This document shows positions 36,664 through 50,964 of a DNA stretch of 64,000 bases, one piece after another. Numbering within the stretch: the stretch's first letter is position 1; every line of letters begins with the position of its first letter. The notes beneath the pieces were generated by a model. The model was not told the origin of the DNA. It made no database searches and worked only from the letters and a program-made list of their open reading frames with translations. Origin of the DNA: Myroides phaeus (GTDB lineage: Bacteria; Bacteroidota; Bacteroidia; Flavobacteriales; Flavobacteriaceae); NCBI RefSeq assembly GCF_900099675.1, contig NZ_FNDQ01000015.1:1-64000 (forward strand), read 5' to 3'. Both the position numbers and the translations under genes were made by a program.

Positions 36664-36779
36664 ATATATACAATGTAAAAAAAGAAGTTTCTGTTAAATA
36701 GTAAACAACCTTCCTTTTCAGATTCTCCCAAGTAATAAATCACAGCTTTTGTATTTCACTAAAATTGTAATCAAAAAAA

Positions 36780-36808
36780 GAGTTACTTCTTTTTACAAAA
36801 AGTAACTC
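36780..36808 (-). terminator. terminator of rtcB
   Basis: A 9-bp stem (36780-36788 with 36800-36808); on the minus strand it is followed by a run of T. Confidence 0.75.
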
Positions 36809-36835
36809 TCTTAATTTATAAAACTTTTATCCCCT

Positions 36836-38269
36836 TTAATCTTCTCTACTTCCATCATCAGCCATACGAACAATTTTAGGAGTAAACTTCGCTAATACAT
36901 CAACTAACTCTCCTTGTGCTGCCATTACTTCATAAATATCTTTATAAGCCATTGGCGCTTCGTCTTTTCCGGCTCCAATTAACTGTACACCACAATCTGC
37001 TAAAACGGCTTTGATATCTTCTGCCTTCAAGTTCTTGATAGCTTGTGTACGACTCATTTGTCGTCCTGCTCCGTGAGATGCTGAATTTAATGCAGTTGCT
37101 TCTCCTTTTCCGCGAACTAAAAACCCAGGGGCAGTCATAGATCCTGGAATAATTCCCATAACACCTTCACTCGCTGGTGTTGCCCCTTTTCTGTGTACAA
37201 TAACTTCTTTTCCTTGATACATCTCTTTCCACGCAAAGTTGTGGTGATTTTCAATCTTTGCTAATACCTCTGCACCTATAGCTTTGGTCAACTTATCGTG
37301 AATTACCTCGTGACAAGCAGAGGCGTAATCTCCAGCTAAGTTCATCATCATCCAATATTCTTGTCCTTCTTGTGAATTCAAATCTAAGTAAGCAAGGTTA
37401 GCCGCTTCTTGTGGTAACTTACAAACCTCTTTTGCAATTTTAGTGTAATGCCCTGCAATTGTTGCTCCCATTCCACGAGAACCTGAGTGTGTCAATAAGG
37501 CTAAGTAAGTTCCTTTATCAATATTCAACACCTCATCGCGGTCTGTAAACTCCATAATCCCCCATTCCACAAAGTGGTTTCCACCTCCTGATGAACCTAA
37601 CTGTGACCAAGCTTTATCTTGTAAATTCTTGATAAACGGATTTAAGTTAAACTCTCCTCTATCTAATATAGCGTGATTGGCTTTATGTTGTCCTAAAAAA
37701 CCGTGTCCTGCTCCAAACTTAGTGTGTTTCACTAATTCCTCTTTTAGCAAACCTTCCATTCCATAAAACTCTACTCCTTTAATATCAAAAATAGAAAGGG
37801 CCATTCTACACCCAATATCTACTCCTACACCATACGGAATGACCGCATTTTCGGTAGCCAACACGCCTCCAATAGGTAATCCGTATCCTTGGTGAGCATC
37901 TGGCATTAACGCCCCAGCTACTGCAACGGGTAATTTCACAGCAGTTTGCATTTGTTTAATTGCTCCTTCTTCAATATAATCTGCTCCGTAAATACTGTAA
38001 GCAACTGCTGCTTCTCTTAATGGGATTACTTCTGTTTCCTCTCTTTGTCCTACGCCATCAATTATCGCTTTAGCCAACTTTCCAAATACCTTGTGATTTA
38101 GATAATCTTCTGCATTATCTAACACCATTTTATAATGTGCTAACATCTCTGTTTTGGTAAACCCTGTACGCTTCTTATTTGCTTTTAAGGCAACACCCAA
38201 CAAAGCGTTCTCTGGATAACCTATCGCAATCAAATCATTTCCGTTTATAACTGTATTTTCCTTTTTCAT
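36836..38269 (-). CDS. rtcB: RtcB family RNA-splicing ligase
   Basis: A 477-residue GTP- and Mn2+-dependent RNA ligase that joins 2',3'-cyclic phosphate (or 3'-phosphate) ends to 5'-OH ends, as left by tRNA anticodon nucleases. Conserved elements are in order: PDAHQGYG (D124, H126), GVDIGC (D151, metal Cys C154), GGGNHF (N231, H232), THSGSRG (H261), HRKGATPA (359-366) and SASHGAGRQMSR (396-407). No archease is beside it. The leader upstream holds a tRNA-like element (38314-38493), and a slipin gene and WYL regulator complete the locus, so it is probably a damage-induced RNA repair enzyme. Confidence 0.95.
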   Translation of the reverse strand: MKKENTVINGNDLIAIGYPENALLGVALKANKKRTGFTKTEMLAHYKMVLDNAEDYLNHKVFGKLAKAIIDGVGQREETEVIPLREAAVAYSIYGADYIEEGAIKQMQTAVKLPVAVAGALMPDAHQGYGLPIGGVLATENAVIPYGVGVDIGCRMALSIFDIKGVEFYGMEGLLKEELVKHTKFGAGHGFLGQHKANHAILDRGEFNLNPFIKNLQDKAWSQLGSSGGGNHFVEWGIMEFTDRDEVLNIDKGTYLALLTHSGSRGMGATIAGHYTKIAKEVCKLPQEAANLAYLDLNSQEGQEYWMMMNLAGDYASACHEVIHDKLTKAIGAEVLAKIENHHNFAWKEMYQGKEVIVHRKGATPASEGVMGIIPGSMTAPGFLVRGKGEATALNSASHGAGRQMSRTQAIKNLKAEDIKAVLADCGVQLIGAGKDEAPMAYKDIYEVMAAQGELVDVLAKFTPKIVRMADDGSRED

Positions 38270-38313
38270 TTTGTATTATCTTTTTTCTCAGAAGAACAAT
38301 TCTCTTTATTTGT

Positions 38314-38493
38314 AACTCTGGTGGGATTCGAACCCACATTCCATATTGGCAGTACGGCTGTTAATACGCTTCCCTACTAACTTCGGTGCCTCTGTAAACT
38401 CTACCAACTTGTCCGCGCAGGTCAAGCCGGGATATCCGTACACTCTACGTTAGCAAATTTAACCGTAGGCTTTTCCTTTTAAGCTACAGAGTC
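38314..38493 (-). ncRNA. tRNA-like RNA B with a ~105-nt insertion in the anticodon loop, in the rtcB leader
   Basis: On the minus strand a class II tRNA fold is seen. Acceptor GACTCTG (38493-38487) pairs with CAGAGTT (38320-38314) in all seven positions, one a G-U. Then TA, D stem GCTT/AAGC with loop AAAAGGAA, anticodon stem TACGG (38467-38463) with CCGTA (38357-38353), a 15-nt variable arm (38352-38338), T stem GTGGG/CCCAC and T loop TTCGAAT. In place of a 7-nt anticodon loop there are 105 nt (38462-38358). The insert has its own pairings, including GTACGG/CCGTAC that competes with the anticodon stem. The 3' side reads ACAA, so CCA is not encoded. It ends about 45 nt before the rtcB start. 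Not an ordinary tRNA gene. Confidence 0.8.
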
Positions 38494-38509
38494 ATTTGAC
38501 TATTAATTA

Positions 38510-38538
38510 CAAAGAATGTGTTCTTCTAAATTATACAA
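38510..38538 (-). promoter_or_regulatory. possible promoter of RNA B / rtcB
   Basis: On the minus strand TTG (38538-38536), 18 bases, then ATTCTTTG (38517-38510), which matches TTTG but not the leading TA of the -7 consensus. A start from here would fall just before the tRNA-like 5' end. Confidence 0.35.
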
Positions 38539-38580
38539 TGCCTTCTTATAAGCAAACTGCTTGGGTTAACGCCATAAAAA

Positions 38581-38607
38581 AAGGCAATTACGATGTGTAA
38601 TTGCCTT
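38581..38607 (-). terminator. terminator of the slipin gene
   Basis: A perfect 11-bp stem (38581-38591 with 38597-38607), on the minus strand followed by seven T residues. It separates the slipin transcript from RNA B and rtcB. Confidence 0.85.
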
Positions 38608-38650
38608 GATATCTATAGCAGGTAGTGTGTTACTACAGCAAAACGATGCA

Positions 38651-39745
38651 TTATTTTCCAAATACCTCTTTCAACTGTTGTAATACATTACCACCACCAG
38701 ATAAGCTGATTTCACCAACTTTCTCGGCAATTTTCTCGATGTATTCCATCTCTTTTAACTTCAGCAACATTTCATTCTCTTCCATTAGTTTGGCAGTATT
38801 CAACAAACTTCTTGTTGCTGCTGTCTCTTCACGGCGAGTAATCATATTGGCTTGTGCTTTCTTTTCAGCAACTAACACTTGGTTCATAATTTCACGGATT
38901 TCTCCTGGCAAGATAATATCTTTGATACCACAAGCTGTTAAATCAATACCTAATGCTGCAATTGAAGCCTTCACTTCTTGCAATAAATCGCCTGATAAGT
39001 TCTCTTTATTTTCCATTAATTCGTCAAAAGACATTCTTCCGATTTTCTCTCTCAACATTAATTGGATAATAGTGTACACTTGTCTTTCAACGTCTTTATT
39101 ATCAACATAAGCTACAAGTAGGTCTTTCACTTGATACGTCAAGCTAAAGTTTACTCTTAATTGCACTTTGTCTTTTGTCAATATCTCTTGCCCATTCATC
39201 TCCATATTCTGTTGACGAATATCAATATACTGTGTTTCAATAATAGAATCGTTGTTCCAGAAACGGTATTCACCTGCTTCTAAAATACGTTCAAACTTAC
39301 CGTTTATTATTAATAACGCTCTCTCATTTGCAGACACAACAACCTTGCGGATGAATTGTCCCATATTACCTTTGTTTGTCAATACACGAGGAATTGTTTC
39401 GTCAACCTCTATTGTATCGATATTGTAACGCTCAAAAGTAAACTCAATAGCGTCTTTCCAAAAGATATGTCTTCCCGCCCCAAGAGCAGTCATAAATACC
39501 TTGTTCTTGAACACTAAAACAACTTCATTGTCTAATACGTCAATTACATTCAACATCGCTTGTAATGTACTATTTTGCAATAGTGCATCTACGTCTTCGC
39601 GAACTGGAAACATATCCGCTTTGTTGAATTGCACAATTTCTTTATTACCCCAAATGATATATTGTCCTGTTTGATATACTTTAGTCAATTCACCTTGGTT
39701 AAAAACTAAGGCAACGTGATTTGTTTTTACTTGTAACTTTTTCAT
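38651..39745 (-). CDS. slipin-like SPFH (band 7) protein, no membrane anchor
   Basis: A 364-residue SPFH-domain protein of the slipin type. Before the SPFH core the sequence holds three similar strand-turn-strand repeats: residues 8-33 (VALVFNQGELTKVYQTGQYIIW), 74-97 (VVLVFKNKVFMTALGAGRHIFW) and 138-163 (ALLIINGKFERILEAGEYRFW). The SPFH core follows (YIDIRQQNMEMNGQEILTKDKVQLRVNFSLTYQV) and then a coiled-coil-like tail (about 290-345, with AEKKAQANMITRREETAATRSLLNTAKL). No N-terminal membrane helix is seen, unlike stomatins. Slipins of this kind are known neighbours of RtcB in bacteria; the role is unknown, perhaps a scaffold. Confidence 0.87.
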   Translation of the reverse strand: MKKLQVKTNHVALVFNQGELTKVYQTGQYIIWGNKEIVQFNKADMFPVREDVDALLQNSTLQAMLNVIDVLDNEVVLVFKNKVFMTALGAGRHIFWKDAIEFTFERYNIDTIEVDETIPRVLTNKGNMGQFIRKVVVSANERALLIINGKFERILEAGEYRFWNNDSIIETQYIDIRQQNMEMNGQEILTKDKVQLRVNFSLTYQVKDLLVAYVDNKDVERQVYTIIQLMLREKIGRMSFDELMENKENLSGDLLQEVKASIAALGIDLTACGIKDIILPGEIREIMNQVLVAEKKAQANMITRREETAATRSLLNTAKLMEENEMLLKLKEMEYIEKIAEKVGEISLSGGGNVLQQLKEVFGK

Positions 39746-39854
39746 TGTACTATTTTTTTAATCTTTTAAATCTTTTGTTGAAAAAGGAGCGATAAATAGG
39801 CTTCCCTTTTTTATAAACGGAAAAACGAGTTAAGTATTCGTTAGTATAGCTTGT

Positions 39855-39898
39855 GTAGTGTCCAAGTTACCTCAGCAAGCAAAGTAAATTCTCACTAC
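39855..39898 (-). other. structured leader element of the slipin gene
   Basis: On the minus strand GTAGTG (39898-39893) pairs with CACTAC (39860-39855), enclosing about 32 bases; an overlapping GCTTG/CAAGC pairing is also possible. It lies between the RNA A terminator and the slipin start. It has no T-loop, so it is not an obvious third tRNA-like unit. Confidence 0.3.
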
Positions 39899-39942
39899 AT
39901 CCCATATACCTCACCAAAACTTATACTTGTTTTTTCAGGTTT

Positions 39943-39982
39943 AAAAAAAGGTGTTCTTTGTCGAAACAAAAAACAGAAACAC
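39943..39982 (-). terminator. terminator of RNA A
   Basis: On the minus strand GTGTT pairs with AACAC, with an inner TTG/CAA closing a TTTCGA loop and a bulge on the 5' side, followed by CTTTTTTT. It lies upstream of the slipin gene, so it ends a separate transcript. Confidence 0.6.
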
Positions 39983-40062
39983 TATTTATCAGAACCTTTT
40001 ATGATGAGAGGTTTTTATAGAAGTCCTCTGCTTCATCCATAAATGCCCGAAGGCTGCGTGAA

Positions 40063-40131
40063 TATTCTGCTTTACCAATTAAGCTATTTTGCCTTTTGAC
40101 AATAGCAGGATTCGAACCTACATCTTGAATA
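40063..40131 (-). ncRNA. circularly permuted tRNA cloverleaf within RNA A
   Basis: Minus-strand order: anticodon 3' strand TATTC (40131-40127), variable loop AAGAT, T stem GTAGG/CCTGC with loop TTCGAAT, acceptor 3' strand TATTGTC (40104-40098), linker AAAA, acceptor 5' strand GGCAAAA (40093-40087), TA, D stem GCTT/AAGC with loop AATTGGTA, A26, anticodon 5' strand GAATA (40067-40063). The pairings make a full cloverleaf: acceptor 6 of 7 (one G-U, one A-A), D stem 4 of 4, anticodon stem 5 of 5, T stem 5 of 5. The 3' half precedes the 5' half and the free ends lie in the anticodon loop. An upstream GACAATA (40191-40185) can also pair perfectly with TATTGTC. Confidence 0.8.
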
Positions 40132-40252
40132 TGGAAACGAGCATTGCCCGTTTGTTCTACGTCCACAAGCAGTATAAGGTAAACTATTGTCCCTCACTTC
40201 CGTGCTATTCAGAAACACTTCCAAGGCTTGCGTCTTTCGAACAGTACAAAGA

Positions 40253-40283
40253 TGCGCATTTATATGCGCAATAGACTTGCGCA
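40253..40283. promoter_or_regulatory. three TGCGCA boxes (candidate WYL operator)
   Basis: TGCGCA occurs at 40253-40258, 40265-40270 and 40278-40283, the first two as an inverted pair around TTTAT. They lie just downstream of the predicted RNA A start, where a bound protein would block transcription. Confidence 0.5.
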
Positions 40284-40297
40284 GATTAAAAAAAGTT

Positions 40298-40327
40298 CAA
40301 AATTATTCACTAACCTTTGTTTTACAA
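40298..40327 (-). promoter_or_regulatory. promoter of RNA A
   Basis: On the minus strand TTG (40327-40325), a 19-base spacer and TAATTTTG (40305-40298) match the Bacteroidetes promoter consensus exactly. Transcription should begin near 40291. Confidence 0.65.
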
Positions 40328-40364
40328 CACTTTACAAACAATAACTTTTTAAACAAAAAACAAC

Positions 40365-40383
40365 TGCGCAAATACATTGCGTA
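40365..40383. promoter_or_regulatory. TGCGCA and TTGCGTA boxes near the WYL promoter
   Basis: TGCGCA at 40365-40370 and TTGCGTA at 40377-40383. The second overlaps the candidate -33 element of the WYL gene, which suggests autoregulation. Confidence 0.45.
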
Positions 40384-40408
40384 CATAAGAAGTTTTTGTG
40401 TACTTTTA
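40377..40408 (+). promoter_or_regulatory. promoter of the WYL regulator gene
   Basis: TTG (40377-40379), a 21-base spacer and TACTTTTA (40401-40408), one base off the TAnnTTTG consensus, 26 bases before the ATG. Confidence 0.5.
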
Positions 40409-40434
40409 TCTCCTATTATTAATCGACAAAAGGA

Positions 40435-41463
40435 ATGGCTACAAATAAATTGGCATTATTACGCTACAAAATCATTGACGAATGCTTACAAAATAGGTTT
40501 AGAAAATGGACATTAGATGACTTGATTGAAAAAGTCTCTGATTCGTTGTATGAATTTGAAGGAATTGATAGTGGTGTGAGTAAACGCACTATTCAACTGG
40601 ATATTCAAACAATGCGCAGTGATAGCTTAGGATATAATGCCCCTATTGTTGTTGTAGACCGAAAGTACTATACTTACGAAGATCCTGATTTTAGCATTAA
40701 AAATTCTCCTATTAACGATACTGATATGGAGAAACTAAAAGAGGTAGTCAATATTTTAAAACACCTCAACGGTTTTAGTCAAGTGGATGAGATGAGTGAG
40801 ATGATTGCTAAACTTGATAATAACTTGCTTAAGCGTAGTTCTAAAGCTCCTGACTATATACAGATGGAAAACAATAATCGCTTGAAGGGAATTCAATTTA
40901 TCAATCCTTTGTATGAAGCGATAAAAAATAAACAGCCTATTTTGATTGAATACAAATCTTTCAAATCGCAACAGGCAAGTAAAGAAATATACCATCCTTA
41001 TTTATTGAAAGAATATAGAAATCGTTGGTTCTTGATTACAAGAAATAATAAGTTTCCTCATTTACTCACGCTGGCTTTGGACAGAATTGTAAATATACAC
41101 ACCTTAGCAAACGAACCTTTTAAACAATATGAGGGCATTGATTTCAACCGTTATTTTGAGGATACAATAGGCGTTACTAAAACTGAAAAAGACAGAGCGA
41201 AAAAAGTTGTTCTTTGGATTGATGCCAAAAATGCTCCTTATGTAAAGACAAAACCAATTCACCCTTCACAACAGATGATTTCCGAAACGAAAGAAGGAAC
41301 AACTTTTCGCTTAGACGTGGTTCTAAACTTTGAATTGGAACGTGAAATACTTGGTTTTGGGGAAAATATGATAGTTCTTGAACCAAAAGAATTAAAAAAG
41401 AGAATAGGTAAACGCTTAAGTAAAATGATTGAAAATTATAATATTACGCCTAAAAATGATTGA
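40435..41463 (+). CDS. WYL-domain transcriptional regulator
   Basis: A 342-residue regulator. The N-terminal part (about 1-75) is a winged helix (LLRYKIIDECLQNRFRKWTLDDLIEKVSD, SKRTIQLDIQTMRSD). The WYL domain (about 155-235) includes ILIEYKSFKSQQASKEIYHPYLLKEYRNRWFLI, and a WCX-like C-terminal extension follows. WYL domains are thought to sense nucleic-acid ligands or nucleotides. It is divergent from RNA A, the slipin gene and rtcB and is their likely regulator, perhaps in response to broken tRNA. It may also regulate itself. Confidence 0.9.
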   Translation: MATNKLALLRYKIIDECLQNRFRKWTLDDLIEKVSDSLYEFEGIDSGVSKRTIQLDIQTMRSDSLGYNAPIVVVDRKYYTYEDPDFSIKNSPINDTDMEKLKEVVNILKHLNGFSQVDEMSEMIAKLDNNLLKRSSKAPDYIQMENNNRLKGIQFINPLYEAIKNKQPILIEYKSFKSQQASKEIYHPYLLKEYRNRWFLITRNNKFPHLLTLALDRIVNIHTLANEPFKQYEGIDFNRYFEDTIGVTKTEKDRAKKVVLWIDAKNAPYVKTKPIHPSQQMISETKEGTTFRLDVVLNFELEREILGFGENMIVLEPKELKKRIGKRLSKMIENYNITPKND

Positions 41464-50319: not shown

Positions 50320-50360
50320 TTTCTAAATATTTTATTAAGTCTATACTATTTTTTCTCTTG

Positions 50361-50432
50361 TAGTCCGTAGGGGAATCGAACCCCTGTTACCAGGATGAAA
50401 ACCTGGCGTCCTAACCCCTAGACGAACGGACC
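50361..50432 (-). tRNA. tRNA-Glu (TTC), copy 1 of 6
   Basis: A full cloverleaf on the minus strand: acceptor GGTCCGT/ACGGACT, D arm GTCT/GGAC, anticodon stem CCAGG/CCTGG with loop TTTTCAT (anticodon TTC), T stem AGGGG/CCCCT with loop TTCGATT, discriminator A. 72 nt, CCA not encoded. Confidence 0.96.
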
Positions 50433-50469
50433 AAAAAAATCTCAATGTGTAAGTTCTAAATGAACTAAG

Positions 50470-50541
50470 TAGTCCGTAGGGGAATCGAACCCCTGTTACC
50501 AGGATGAAAACCTGGCGTCCTAACCCCTAGACGAACGGACC
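50470..50541 (-). tRNA. tRNA-Glu (TTC), copy 2 of 6
   Basis: Same 72-base sequence as copy 1 on reading; spacer of 37 bases. Confidence 0.96.
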
Positions 50542-50575
50542 AAAATCTCAATATATTAAGTTTCAAAAAAACTTG

Positions 50576-50647
50576 TAGTCCGTAGGGGAATCGAACCCCT
50601 GTTACCAGGATGAAAACCTGGCGTCCTAACCCCTAGACGAACGGACC
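50576..50647 (-). tRNA. tRNA-Glu (TTC), copy 3 of 6
   Basis: Same 72-base sequence as copy 1; the AT-rich spacer resembles the one next to it. Confidence 0.96.
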
Positions 50648-50680
50648 AAAATCTCAATATATTAAGTTTTAAAAAACTTG

Positions 50681-50752
50681 TAGTCCGTAGGGGAATCGAA
50701 CCCCTGTTACCAGGATGAAAACCTGGCGTCCTAACCCCTAGACGAACGGACC
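50681..50752 (-). tRNA. tRNA-Glu (TTC), copy 4 of 6
   Basis: Same 72-base sequence as copy 1; the spacer to copy 3 is almost the same as that between copies 2 and 3. Confidence 0.96.
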
Positions 50753-50786
50753 AATAATATCAATATATAAGTTTTAAAAAAACCTG

Positions 50787-50858
50787 TAGTCCGTAGGGGA
50801 ATCGAACCCCTGTTACCAGGATGAAAACCTGGCGTCCTAACCCCTAGACGAACGGACC
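50787..50858 (-). tRNA. tRNA-Glu (TTC), copy 5 of 6
   Basis: Same 72-base sequence as copy 1. Confidence 0.96.
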
Positions 50859-50892
50859 ATTAATATCAATATTTACATTTAAAAGAACTTTG

Positions 50893-50964
50893 TAGTCCGT
50901 AGGGGAATCGAACCCCTGTTACCAGGATGAAAACCTGGCGTCCTAACCCCTAGACGAACGGACC
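50893..50964 (-). tRNA. tRNA-Glu (TTC), copy 6 of 6
   Basis: Same 72-base sequence as copy 1; as the minus-strand copy farthest upstream, it is probably transcribed first. Confidence 0.96.

What the first reader, a model, noticed from the sequence alone, without database searches (positions are those of the whole stretch)
36836..41463. RtcB ligase, slipin, WYL regulator and two tRNA-like RNAs form one candidate RNA-repair or damage-sensing locus
Genes in order on the minus strand are RNA A, slipin-like protein, RNA B and rtcB, with a WYL regulator divergent from RNA A. The two RNAs each hold a tRNA fold that is interrupted at the anticodon loop, which is the bond that anticodon nucleases cut and that RtcB seals. 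RtcB is known to join 2',3'-cyclic phosphate to 5'-OH, and RtcB-slipin pairs and RtcB-tRNA-like RNA pairs are known in other bacteria. The arrangement here, with two different tRNA mimics inside the locus, is not one I recall. I infer they sense, compete for, or are substrates of the ligase.
Basis: partly seen in the sequence, partly recalled or inferred. Interest (0 to 1): 0.9.

Follow-up and report, generated by a model that had tools for sequence, protein, structure and literature searches.

The report
Two tRNA-like RNAs beside RtcB
A Myroides-like bacterium carries, next to an RNA-repair enzyme and a scaffold-type protein, two different RNAs that imitate transfer RNA; base-pair changes across relatives show both are real, and the gene partners suggest they are pieces of an RNA-damage repair machine.

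Summary
The window encodes rtcB, an SPFH/Band-7 "slipin" and a divergent WYL regulator, with one tRNA-like RNA before slipin (RNA A) and one before rtcB (RNA B). RNA A is a circularly permuted tRNA: T arm, acceptor stem closed by a short loop, D arm, with the anticodon stem open. It covaries strongly (98.2% of cells paired, 153 double changes) and lies upstream of 27 of 28 slipin genes not used for training. The closest Rfam model is YrlA (35.4 bits; gathering score 69), but this genome has no Ro/TROVE protein. RNA A looks like a slipin-dedicated counterpart of Y RNAs. RNA B is a separate 180-nt family: a canonical tRNA core with about 100 nt inserted before the T arm. It has no Rfam family and covaries strongly; 10 of 11 carriers have TROVE or slipin. 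The exact WYL-type operator occurs at two places in the genome, both here. RtcB-SPFH systems with a tRNA-like RNA are already described (recalled, Burroughs & Aravind 2016); RNA B and the permuted form may be new. Docking, sensing or decoy roles are inferred.

The parts
36836..38269 (-). rtcB, RNA ligase (477 aa)
   Evidence: PF01139 E 1.9e-80; GCR, GGGNH, HSGSR, HN, HRKGA motifs present (their role is recalled)
36776..36812 (-). intrinsic-terminator-like hairpin after rtcB
38314..38493 (-). RNA B: tRNA-like RNA with ~100-nt insert before the T arm
   Evidence: model R1 207.5 bits; 11 sequences: 97.2% of cells paired, 73 double changes vs 18 in shuffles
38321..38337 (-). RNA B T arm
38352..38441 (-). 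RNA B insert domain, closed by a covarying 6-bp stem (38436-38441 with 38352-38357)
   Evidence: helix 3 98.5% paired; coordinates counted by hand
38445..38468 (-). RNA B hairpin at the anticodon-arm position, 14-nt loop
   Evidence: left out of the pair count
38469..38484 (-). RNA B D arm
   Evidence: helix 2 100% paired
38581..38607 (-). intrinsic-terminator-like hairpin between slipin and RNA B
38651..39745 (-). slipin / SPFH-Band 7 protein (364 aa): two five-strand N-terminal repeats, SPFH domain, long helix
   Evidence: PF01145; AlphaFold2 model pLDDT 81.3
39984..40242 (-). RNA A, approximate extent (5' domain, permuted tRNA module, 3' domain)
   Evidence: block aligned over 7 Myroides-type sequences incl. 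the window, mean column identity 78%; ends not mapped
40202..40218 (-). RNA A S-hairpin GTG[TTTCTGAATAG]CAC in the 5' domain
   Evidence: such a hairpin upstream of 49 of 61 slipin genes, stem changes in step; antisense control 1 hit in 77,465 nt
40057..40135 (-). RNA A permuted tRNA module incl. anticodon-stem strands
   Evidence: R2 65.5 bits; Rfam YrlA 35.4 bits, E 1.8e-5, sub-gathering
40105..40121 (-). RNA A T arm
40087..40104 (-). RNA A acceptor stem closed by a 4-nt loop
   Evidence: the helix covaries in relatives
40069..40084 (-). RNA A D arm
40265..40283 (.). inverted repeat, proposed WYL operator, upstream of RNA A
   Evidence: one of two exact matches in the 2.97-Mb genome, reversed-pattern control 0
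40365..40383 (.). inverted repeat, proposed WYL operator, upstream of the WYL gene
   Evidence: motif in 45 of 48 WYL upstream regions
40435..41463 (+). WYL/WCX transcriptional regulator (342 aa)
   Evidence: PF13280, PF25583

Best explanation
This is an RtcB RNA-repair island with two structural RNAs. RNA A is the slipin's partner RNA, a Y-RNA-like molecule. Its 5' domain with the S-hairpin is the likely tether to the slipin assembly. Its permuted, acceptor-closed tRNA elbow is the likely docking face for proteins that recognise tRNA (RtcB, PNPase-type nucleases or other damaged-tRNA enzymes). RNA B is a second tRNA-like RNA found in both Ro-type and slipin-type islands; here it precedes rtcB and is probably transcribed with it. 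A WYL regulator whose operator is found only at this locus switches RNA A and slipin, presumably under RNA damage or translational stress. Shown: the genes, both RNA folds, the near-constant RNA A-slipin pairing, the linkage of RNA B to such islands, and the two operator sites. Inferred: that WYL binds them, that RNA A binds slipin, recruitment of RtcB, the signal, and any function of RNA B.
For: A T arm lies on the sense strand within 1.3 kb of 61 of 62 slipin genes, none antisense; the miss, L020, has only 79 nt upstream. Permuted module parsed in 58 of 61. In genomes drawn without regard to the RNA, R2 hits upstream of 27 of 28 slipin genes. Module covariation: 98.2% of cells paired vs 72.0% shuffled and 39-51% with slid partners; all five anticodon-stem pairs covary. 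RNAs of six TROVE loci match the same module (best 48-57 bits each) but carry another hairpin: 11 of 11 TROVE loci vs 5 of 36 slipin-only and 4 of 42 other loci. RNA B: covariation; 8 strong carriers in 396 genomes, all 8 with TROVE or slipin, which together mark 46 of the 396; with G222, L066 and L105 added, 10 of 11. Operator: 45 of 48 WYL upstream regions, two sites genome-wide. Literature: YrlA's basal stem tethers Rsr and its tRNA-like domain binds PNPase (PMC8394870, passages). In Anabaena, loss of the repressor TrcR raises rtcB, a slipin gene and a 26-tRNA operon, as does antibiotic stress (PMC10272220, abstract and passages).
Against: No expression or binding data. A terminator-like hairpin separates slipin from RNA B and no operator lies before RNA B in the window, so RNA B and rtcB may not share the WYL switch. 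One RNA B carrier, the genome of L066, has neither TROVE nor a slipin of this kind. Of 80 rtcB loci, 40 show neither slipin nor TROVE in the stretch held, so RtcB does not need them. One slipin locus (L164) has no R2 hit, and the weakest hit of the 27 (36.1 bits, L161) is only a little above tandem tRNA genes (up to 32 bits).
Confidence: 0.57

Rival explanations
1. Bait or decoy: RNA A presents tRNA-like parts to anticodon nucleases; it is cut in place of tRNA and resealed by RtcB, or it blocks the nuclease.
For: 48 of 73 slipin loci follow the last D arm with a 7-nt-loop hairpin with U in the second loop position (1.2% in shuffles); the triplet in anticodon position takes 18 values, e.g. Lys, Leu, Phe, Tyr, Asn, Asp. 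The authors of PMC7790460 themselves suggest that YrlA's tRNA-like domain may act as a competitive inhibitor of the nuclease (passages).
Against: The window's own RNA A lacks this hairpin, as do 25 of 73 loci. Fragments of YrlA were not detected when tRNAs were cut in Salmonella (PMC7790460, passages), against the cut-and-reseal form. The varying hairpin could be copied from local tRNA genes.
Confidence: 0.2
2. RNA B is a cis-acting leader of rtcB: its tRNA-like fold is cut by RNase P/Z or bound by RtcB to set rtcB expression.
For: RNA B ends 44 nt before the rtcB start codon with no terminator-like site in between. It directly precedes rtcB in L066, whose genome has neither TROVE nor such a slipin, and a distant rtcB (28% identity) in L115.
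Against: Elsewhere RNA B precedes RNA A and slipin (L105, L131), Y-type RNAs (L132, L133) or an unrelated 227-aa ORF (L114), so it is not tied to rtcB.
Confidence: 0.28
3. RNA A is a tRNA precursor: RtcB joins its open anticodon ends and RNase P/Z open the acceptor, as for circularly permuted tRNA genes of archaea and algae.
For: Same part order as permuted tRNA genes (recalled; PMC3978253 seen as search listing only); RtcB is beside it.
Against: The acceptor is closed by loops of 3-10 nt, many of stable tetraloop type, with no room for processed ends. The window's copy lacks an anticodon arm.
Confidence: 0.04
4. Decayed tRNA genes or chance resemblance.
For: Real tRNA arrays occur in sister loci; ARAGORN and Rfam gathering call neither RNA.
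Against: Covariation far above shuffled and slid controls; independent recurrence upstream of slipin.
Confidence: 0.01

Closest known systems
RtcB RNA-repair systems with SPFH/Band-7 or TROVE scaffolds and partner RNAs (Burroughs & Aravind 2016, NAR 44:8525; not held, recalled from its abstract)
   Same: RtcB, Band-7 protein, a tRNA-like RNA and, in sister loci, RlaP and TROVE occur together.
Bacterial Y RNA YrlA (Rfam RF02553) with Ro60/Rsr
   Same: Permuted T-acceptor-D tRNA mimic in a modular RNA; RNA A scores 35.4 bits, like RNAs of three TROVE loci searched (30-41 bits).
   Different: No Ro protein in the genome; slipin instead; S-hairpin instead of the hairpin of TROVE-locus RNAs; below the gathering score.
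tmRNA (RF00023)
   Same: A tRNA core with a long insertion (RNA B).
   Different: Only the T arm matches (14.3 bits, gathering 47); RNA B has a D stem. A tag reading frame was not sought.
Vault particle (MVP, TEP1, vault RNA)
   Same: Slipin model shares the order beta repeats - SPFH-like shoulder - long helix (rat vault 4v60_A Z 11.7, rmsd 4.5, 255 residues aligned, model 2-353).
   Different: The N-terminal repeats alone match MVP only at Z 2.4 and SPFH proteins such as erlin better (Z 5.0, 51 residues); one of 19 slipins has a weak MVP_shoulder hit (E 0.0079).

Membership tests
Bacterial Y RNA (YrlA, RF02553) - RNA A | permuted tRNA-like domain (T, acceptor, D arms) | tested here: met
Bacterial Y RNA (YrlA, RF02553) - RNA A | score at or above Rfam gathering threshold | tested here: not met
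   35.4 vs 69 bits
Bacterial Y RNA (YrlA, RF02553) - RNA A | Ro/TROVE partner in the genome | tested here: not met
   PF05731 not found in the 99.98% complete genome
Bacterial Y RNA (YrlA, RF02553) - RNA A | hairpin shared by RNAs of TROVE loci (G[CT]CGT..ACTTC) | tested here: not met
   none in the window; 11 of 11 TROVE loci have it; that it binds Ro is inference
Bacterial Y RNA (YrlA, RF02553) - RNA A | basal stem pairing the 5' and 3' ends | tested here: inconclusive
   alignment of 7 sequences inspected by eye only
RtcB-SPFH RNA-repair system | RtcB ligase with family motifs | tested here: met
RtcB-SPFH RNA-repair system | SPFH/Band-7 protein beside it | tested here: met
RtcB-SPFH RNA-repair system | tRNA-like partner RNA | tested here: met
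RtcB-SPFH RNA-repair system | RlaP nucleotidyltransferase in the locus (frequent, not constant) | tested here: not met
   no such ORF between slipin and rtcB in the window; RlaP in 20 of 80 rtcB loci
RtcB-SPFH RNA-repair system | RNA ligation activity | not testable with these tools
   needs biochemistry
tmRNA - RNA B | match to the tmRNA model | tested here: not met
   14.3 bits, T arm only, gathering 47
Vault major protein (MVP) - slipin | tandem vault repeats before an SPFH-like shoulder | tested here: inconclusive
   whole-model alignment to 4v60_A Z 11.7, repeats alone Z 2.4

The most novel reading that the evidence does not exclude
RNA B is an undescribed class of structured RNA that serves both Ro-type and slipin-type repair machines. 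RNA A is the slipin's own Y-RNA counterpart, in many species carrying an exchangeable anticodon arm. The slipin is a vault-like shell, so that Ro/Y RNA, slipin/RNA A and the eukaryotic vault (MVP, TROVE-bearing TEP1, vault RNA) would be variants of one ancient RNA-handling particle. The vault part rests on domain order and on recall about TEP1 only.
Probability: 0.2. Interest if true: 0.85.

Novelty: new variant of a known kind. Interest (0 to 1): 0.62.

Why it matters
Bacterial RtcB has a known chemistry but its partners and natural substrates in the cell are poorly known. The locus offers two conserved, testable RNAs, one tied in evolution to a scaffold protein of unknown function. If slipin and Ro are interchangeable scaffolds, each with its own tRNA mimic, that would explain why SPFH proteins sit in RNA-repair operons and give a route to the signal that turns these operons on.

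Tried and rejected
Rejected: (1) two tandem canonical tRNA genes mimicking a permuted one: the acceptor strands pair across a 3-10 nt loop and covary. (2) Insert of RNA B in the anticodon loop: the 5- and 11-sequence alignments place a hairpin at the anticodon arm and the insert after it. MAFFT shifts that hairpin by one column in some rows, so it and the small hairpin before the T arm were left out of the pair count. (3) RNA B as a Ro-only RNA: 0 of 11 RNA B sequences carry the hairpin of TROVE-locus RNAs, and 3 of the 8 strong carriers in the class sample, G000, G154 and G160, have no TROVE, nor do G222 and the genomes of L066 and L105. (4) Mobile or phage origin of RNA B: no match in the phage and plasmid collections (blastn) or, as an exact core pattern, in viral contigs. 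(5) Defence-system membership: PADLOC matches only the WYL protein (two WYL models and Cas3c), not RtcB or slipin. (6) Vault membership of slipin: inconclusive; MVP rows do not stand out once the repeats are searched alone.

Weak, failed or left out: the alignment A2 held five rows whose coordinates I had guessed; it was dropped for A3, which uses 24 of the 33 first modules listed (nine near-duplicates or differently shaped ones left out) plus the window, L031 and L033. A1 uses 34 of the 58 last modules. A first D-arm parser found a module in 1 of 62 through a coding fault and was rewritten. One search left out G160 and G516 (L131, L132, L155, L160) and identical upstream stretches. Five further R1 hits at 28-37 bits (G535, G568, G596, G606, G778) are not in the 'strong' count; L136-L138 show no slipin, rtcB or TROVE by tblastn and L139 has part of an rtcB. 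The 12 slipin loci without the S-hairpin pattern are L062, L069, L020, L071, L023, L022, L026, L104, L105, L025, L110, L027. A late check showed that the genome of L066 carries RNA B without TROVE or this slipin; I lowered the best explanation from 0.60 to 0.57 and raised the leader rival from 0.25 to 0.28.

Literature: searches with RtcB+slipin, RtcB+tRNA-like+Y RNA, YrlA+Y RNA+tRNA, Band-7+RtcB+tRNA-like, 'RNA damage in biological'+RtcB+SPFH, permuted tRNA+RtcB, Ro60 terms, RlaP+RtcB, vault+SPFH+TROVE, and a mixed query listed no paper whose title, abstract start or opened passages describe RNA B or a permuted slipin RNA. The key papers (Burroughs & Aravind 2016; Chen et al. 2014; Sim et al. 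2020) are not held, so absence from print is not claimed.
Full report
What is there. The window (a Myroides-like chromosome; the eight best-ranked rtcB relatives are Myroides at 87-89% identity) encodes on the minus strand, in order of transcription, RNA A, slipin, RNA B and rtcB, with a WYL regulator divergent from RNA A. RtcB keeps its family motifs (their meaning is recalled). Slipin is a Band-7 protein; NCBIfam gives nothing above its cut-offs.

RNA A. Reading the strand shows T arm, acceptor 3' strand, a 4-base loop, acceptor 5' strand, D arm: a tRNA whose halves are swapped and whose acceptor end is closed. Rfam's YrlA model finds it at 35.4 bits, E 1.8e-5, below its 69-bit gathering score. 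Among 62 slipin matches (the window counted twice through L001) 61 have a perfect T arm on the sense strand within 1.3 kb upstream and none has one on the antisense strand; the one miss has 79 nt of upstream DNA. Some of these T arms belong to true tRNA genes further upstream. A permuted module was parsed in 58 of 61 loci. In 27 modules (24 of 33 first modules, plus the window, L031 and L033) 98.2% of cells pair, against 72.0% in shuffles and 39-51% with slid partners; 153 cells carry changes on both sides against 42. The five anticodon-stem pairs, formed by the bases just before the T arm and just after the D arm, all covary. Thirty-four last modules give 90.8% paired and 138 double changes. 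These counts are on MAFFT alignments, not model-fitted ones; shuffles do not correct for relatedness.

Independent check of RNA A. Slipin (E below 1e-60) occurs in 30 of 396 genomes of the class. Two of the 30 had been seen before, the window and L012. In the other 28 loci the module model finds a copy upstream on the sense strand in 27 (best hits 36-82 bits); the miss is L164. Tandem canonical tRNA genes reach at most 32 bits in the 11 sources, so the weakest of the 27 (36.1 bits) is close to that background. Many loci carry two or three modules in a chain. In 48 of 73 loci the last D arm is followed by a hairpin with a 7-base loop and U in its second place, against 1.2% in shuffles; 18 different triplets stand in the anticodon position. 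The window is one of the 25 without it.

RNA A's 5' domain. Roughly 80-120 nt before the first T arm lies a hairpin with loop [CT]TTC-N3-A-[CT]-[AG]-G and a stem that changes in step (GTG/CAC 22, GCG/CGC 12, GGG/CCC 12, three others once each). 49 of 61 loci have it, against one antisense hit in 77,465 nt. RNAs of TROVE loci carry instead a G[CT]CGT..ACTTC hairpin: 11 of 11 TROVE loci, 5 of 36 slipin-only loci, 4 of 42 others. So RNA A and the Ro-linked RNAs share the permuted module (six TROVE loci, best 48-57 bits each) but differ in the neighbouring domain, which in YrlA is the part that holds Rsr. The window genome has no TROVE gene.

RNA B. The first homologues came from blastn within the fetched loci and from a core pattern found in 3 of 395 genomes of the order, with no hit to the reversed control in those genomes. 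The family model, trained on five sequences of which two (G000, G154) lie in the sample, gives 8 strong hits (above 90 bits) in 396 genomes of the class and five weak ones. On 11 sequences 97.2% of cells in 29 pairs are paired (72.2% in shuffles, 34-46% slid), with 73 double changes against 18. All seven acceptor pairs and all seven pairs of the inner hairpin show changes on both sides, though one inner pair is unpaired in 6 of 11. Much of the insert core is invariant or nearly so, L135 departing most. No Rfam family covers it: at E up to 5 the region has only two hits on the T arm, tmRNA (14.3 bits) and a plastid 3'UTR model on the other strand (16.6 bits).

Company of RNA B. In five of the eight strong carriers, G152, G516, G557, G675 and G824, TROVE lies 0.04-2.1 kb upstream. 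The other three, G000, G154 and G160, have slipin and no TROVE. TROVE occurs in 19 and slipin in 30 of the 396, three shared, so 46 have either. Of the three carriers known outside that sample, G222 and the genome of L105 have slipin, but the genome of L066 has neither. It does have WYL, RNA B and rtcB in a row. So RNA B belongs to these islands without depending strictly on either scaffold.

Regulation. An inverted repeat [TG][AG]CGCA-N5..9-TGCG[CT][AC] stands within 900 nt upstream of 45 of 48 WYL genes. The 80 loci (1.30 Mb) hold 72 matches, against 3 in shuffled sequence; the WYL upstream regions, counting the two of this window, hold 58. In the whole 2.97-Mb genome the strict form occurs at two places only, both between WYL and RNA A. 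RNA B in the window has no such site and is preceded by a terminator-like hairpin after slipin, so rtcB may be expressed apart from slipin. In L066, L114 and L115 similar sites do precede RNA B (by eye). That WYL binds these repeats is inferred.

The island. Of 80 rtcB loci, 47 have this WYL, 34 slipin, 20 RlaP and 6 TROVE. Slipin and TROVE do not share a locus there, though both occur in L132. Ten of 78 rtcB loci scanned with ARAGORN list three or more tRNA genes, up to 20 (L099 and L103 not scanned). This recalls Anabaena, where loss of the repressor TrcR, or antibiotic stress, raises rtcB, a slipin gene and a 26-tRNA operon (PMC10272220, abstract and passages). An SPFH gene lies in the rtc locus of Pseudomonas aeruginosa (PMC13086221, one passage).

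Slipin structure. The AlphaFold2 model (mean pLDDT 81.3, pTM 0.57) has two N-terminal five-strand repeats, the SPFH domain and a long helix. Stomatin, prohibitin and HflK/C match from about residue 121 on; the rat vault protein aligns from residue 2 to 353 (Z 11.7, rmsd 4.5, 255 residues). The N-terminal part alone matches erlin best (Z 5.0) and MVP only at Z 2.4. The vault likeness is a lead, not a finding.

Mechanism. In the best-known relative the basal stem of YrlA holds Rsr and its tRNA-like domain holds PNPase (PMC8394870, passages). By analogy I propose that RNA A's 5' domain holds slipin and its permuted elbow docks tRNA-binding enzymes, RtcB among them. Binding, signal and target are inferred. 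A bait or decoy role fits the variable anticodon hairpins of many relatives but not the window's own copy; the authors of PMC7790460 found no YrlA fragments yet suggest a competitive inhibitor role (passages). RNA B's role is open: a cis leader of rtcB is possible here and in L066, but not in loci where it precedes other genes.

Known or new. Systems of RtcB with SPFH or TROVE scaffolds, RlaP and cognate RNAs, including a tRNA-like one, are recalled from the abstract of Burroughs & Aravind 2016, which is not held. I therefore rate the locus a new variant of a known kind.

Noticed in passing
L040, L104, L110, L043, L044, L048, L071, L075, L101, L102: Arrays of 3-20 tRNA genes lie in these rtcB loci, some with slipin, possibly spare tRNAs switched on with repair.
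   Followed up: partly
L040:10100-10700: Two tRNA-like genes (Leu- and Tyr-like by eye, not called by ARAGORN) carry the same 18-bp palindromic insert inside the T loop.
   Followed up: no
L039, L130, L132, L133: TROVE genes with arrays of 3-6 copies of a shared hairpin (G[CT]CGT..ACTTC), several followed by permuted tRNA modules; YrlA hits in L039, L130 and L133 stay below Rfam's gathering score.
   Followed up: partly
L115:7819-11901 and L115:6202-7668: RNA B lies between a distant RtcB (28% identity) with RlaP and a divergent 1360-aa DUF4011/AAA/REase_MTES_1575 protein.
   Followed up: no
window 50360-50964 (-): Six tandem tRNA-Glu(TTC) genes, each 61.8 bits to the Rfam model.
   Followed up: no
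L031:7600-8003, L004 spacer: The slipin-rtcB spacers of these Myroides-type loci are long low-complexity tracts instead of RNA B.
   Followed up: no
L038:1630-1755: A canonical-order tRNA-like element with an enlarged anticodon stem follows slipin; it is not an R1 match.
   Followed up: partly
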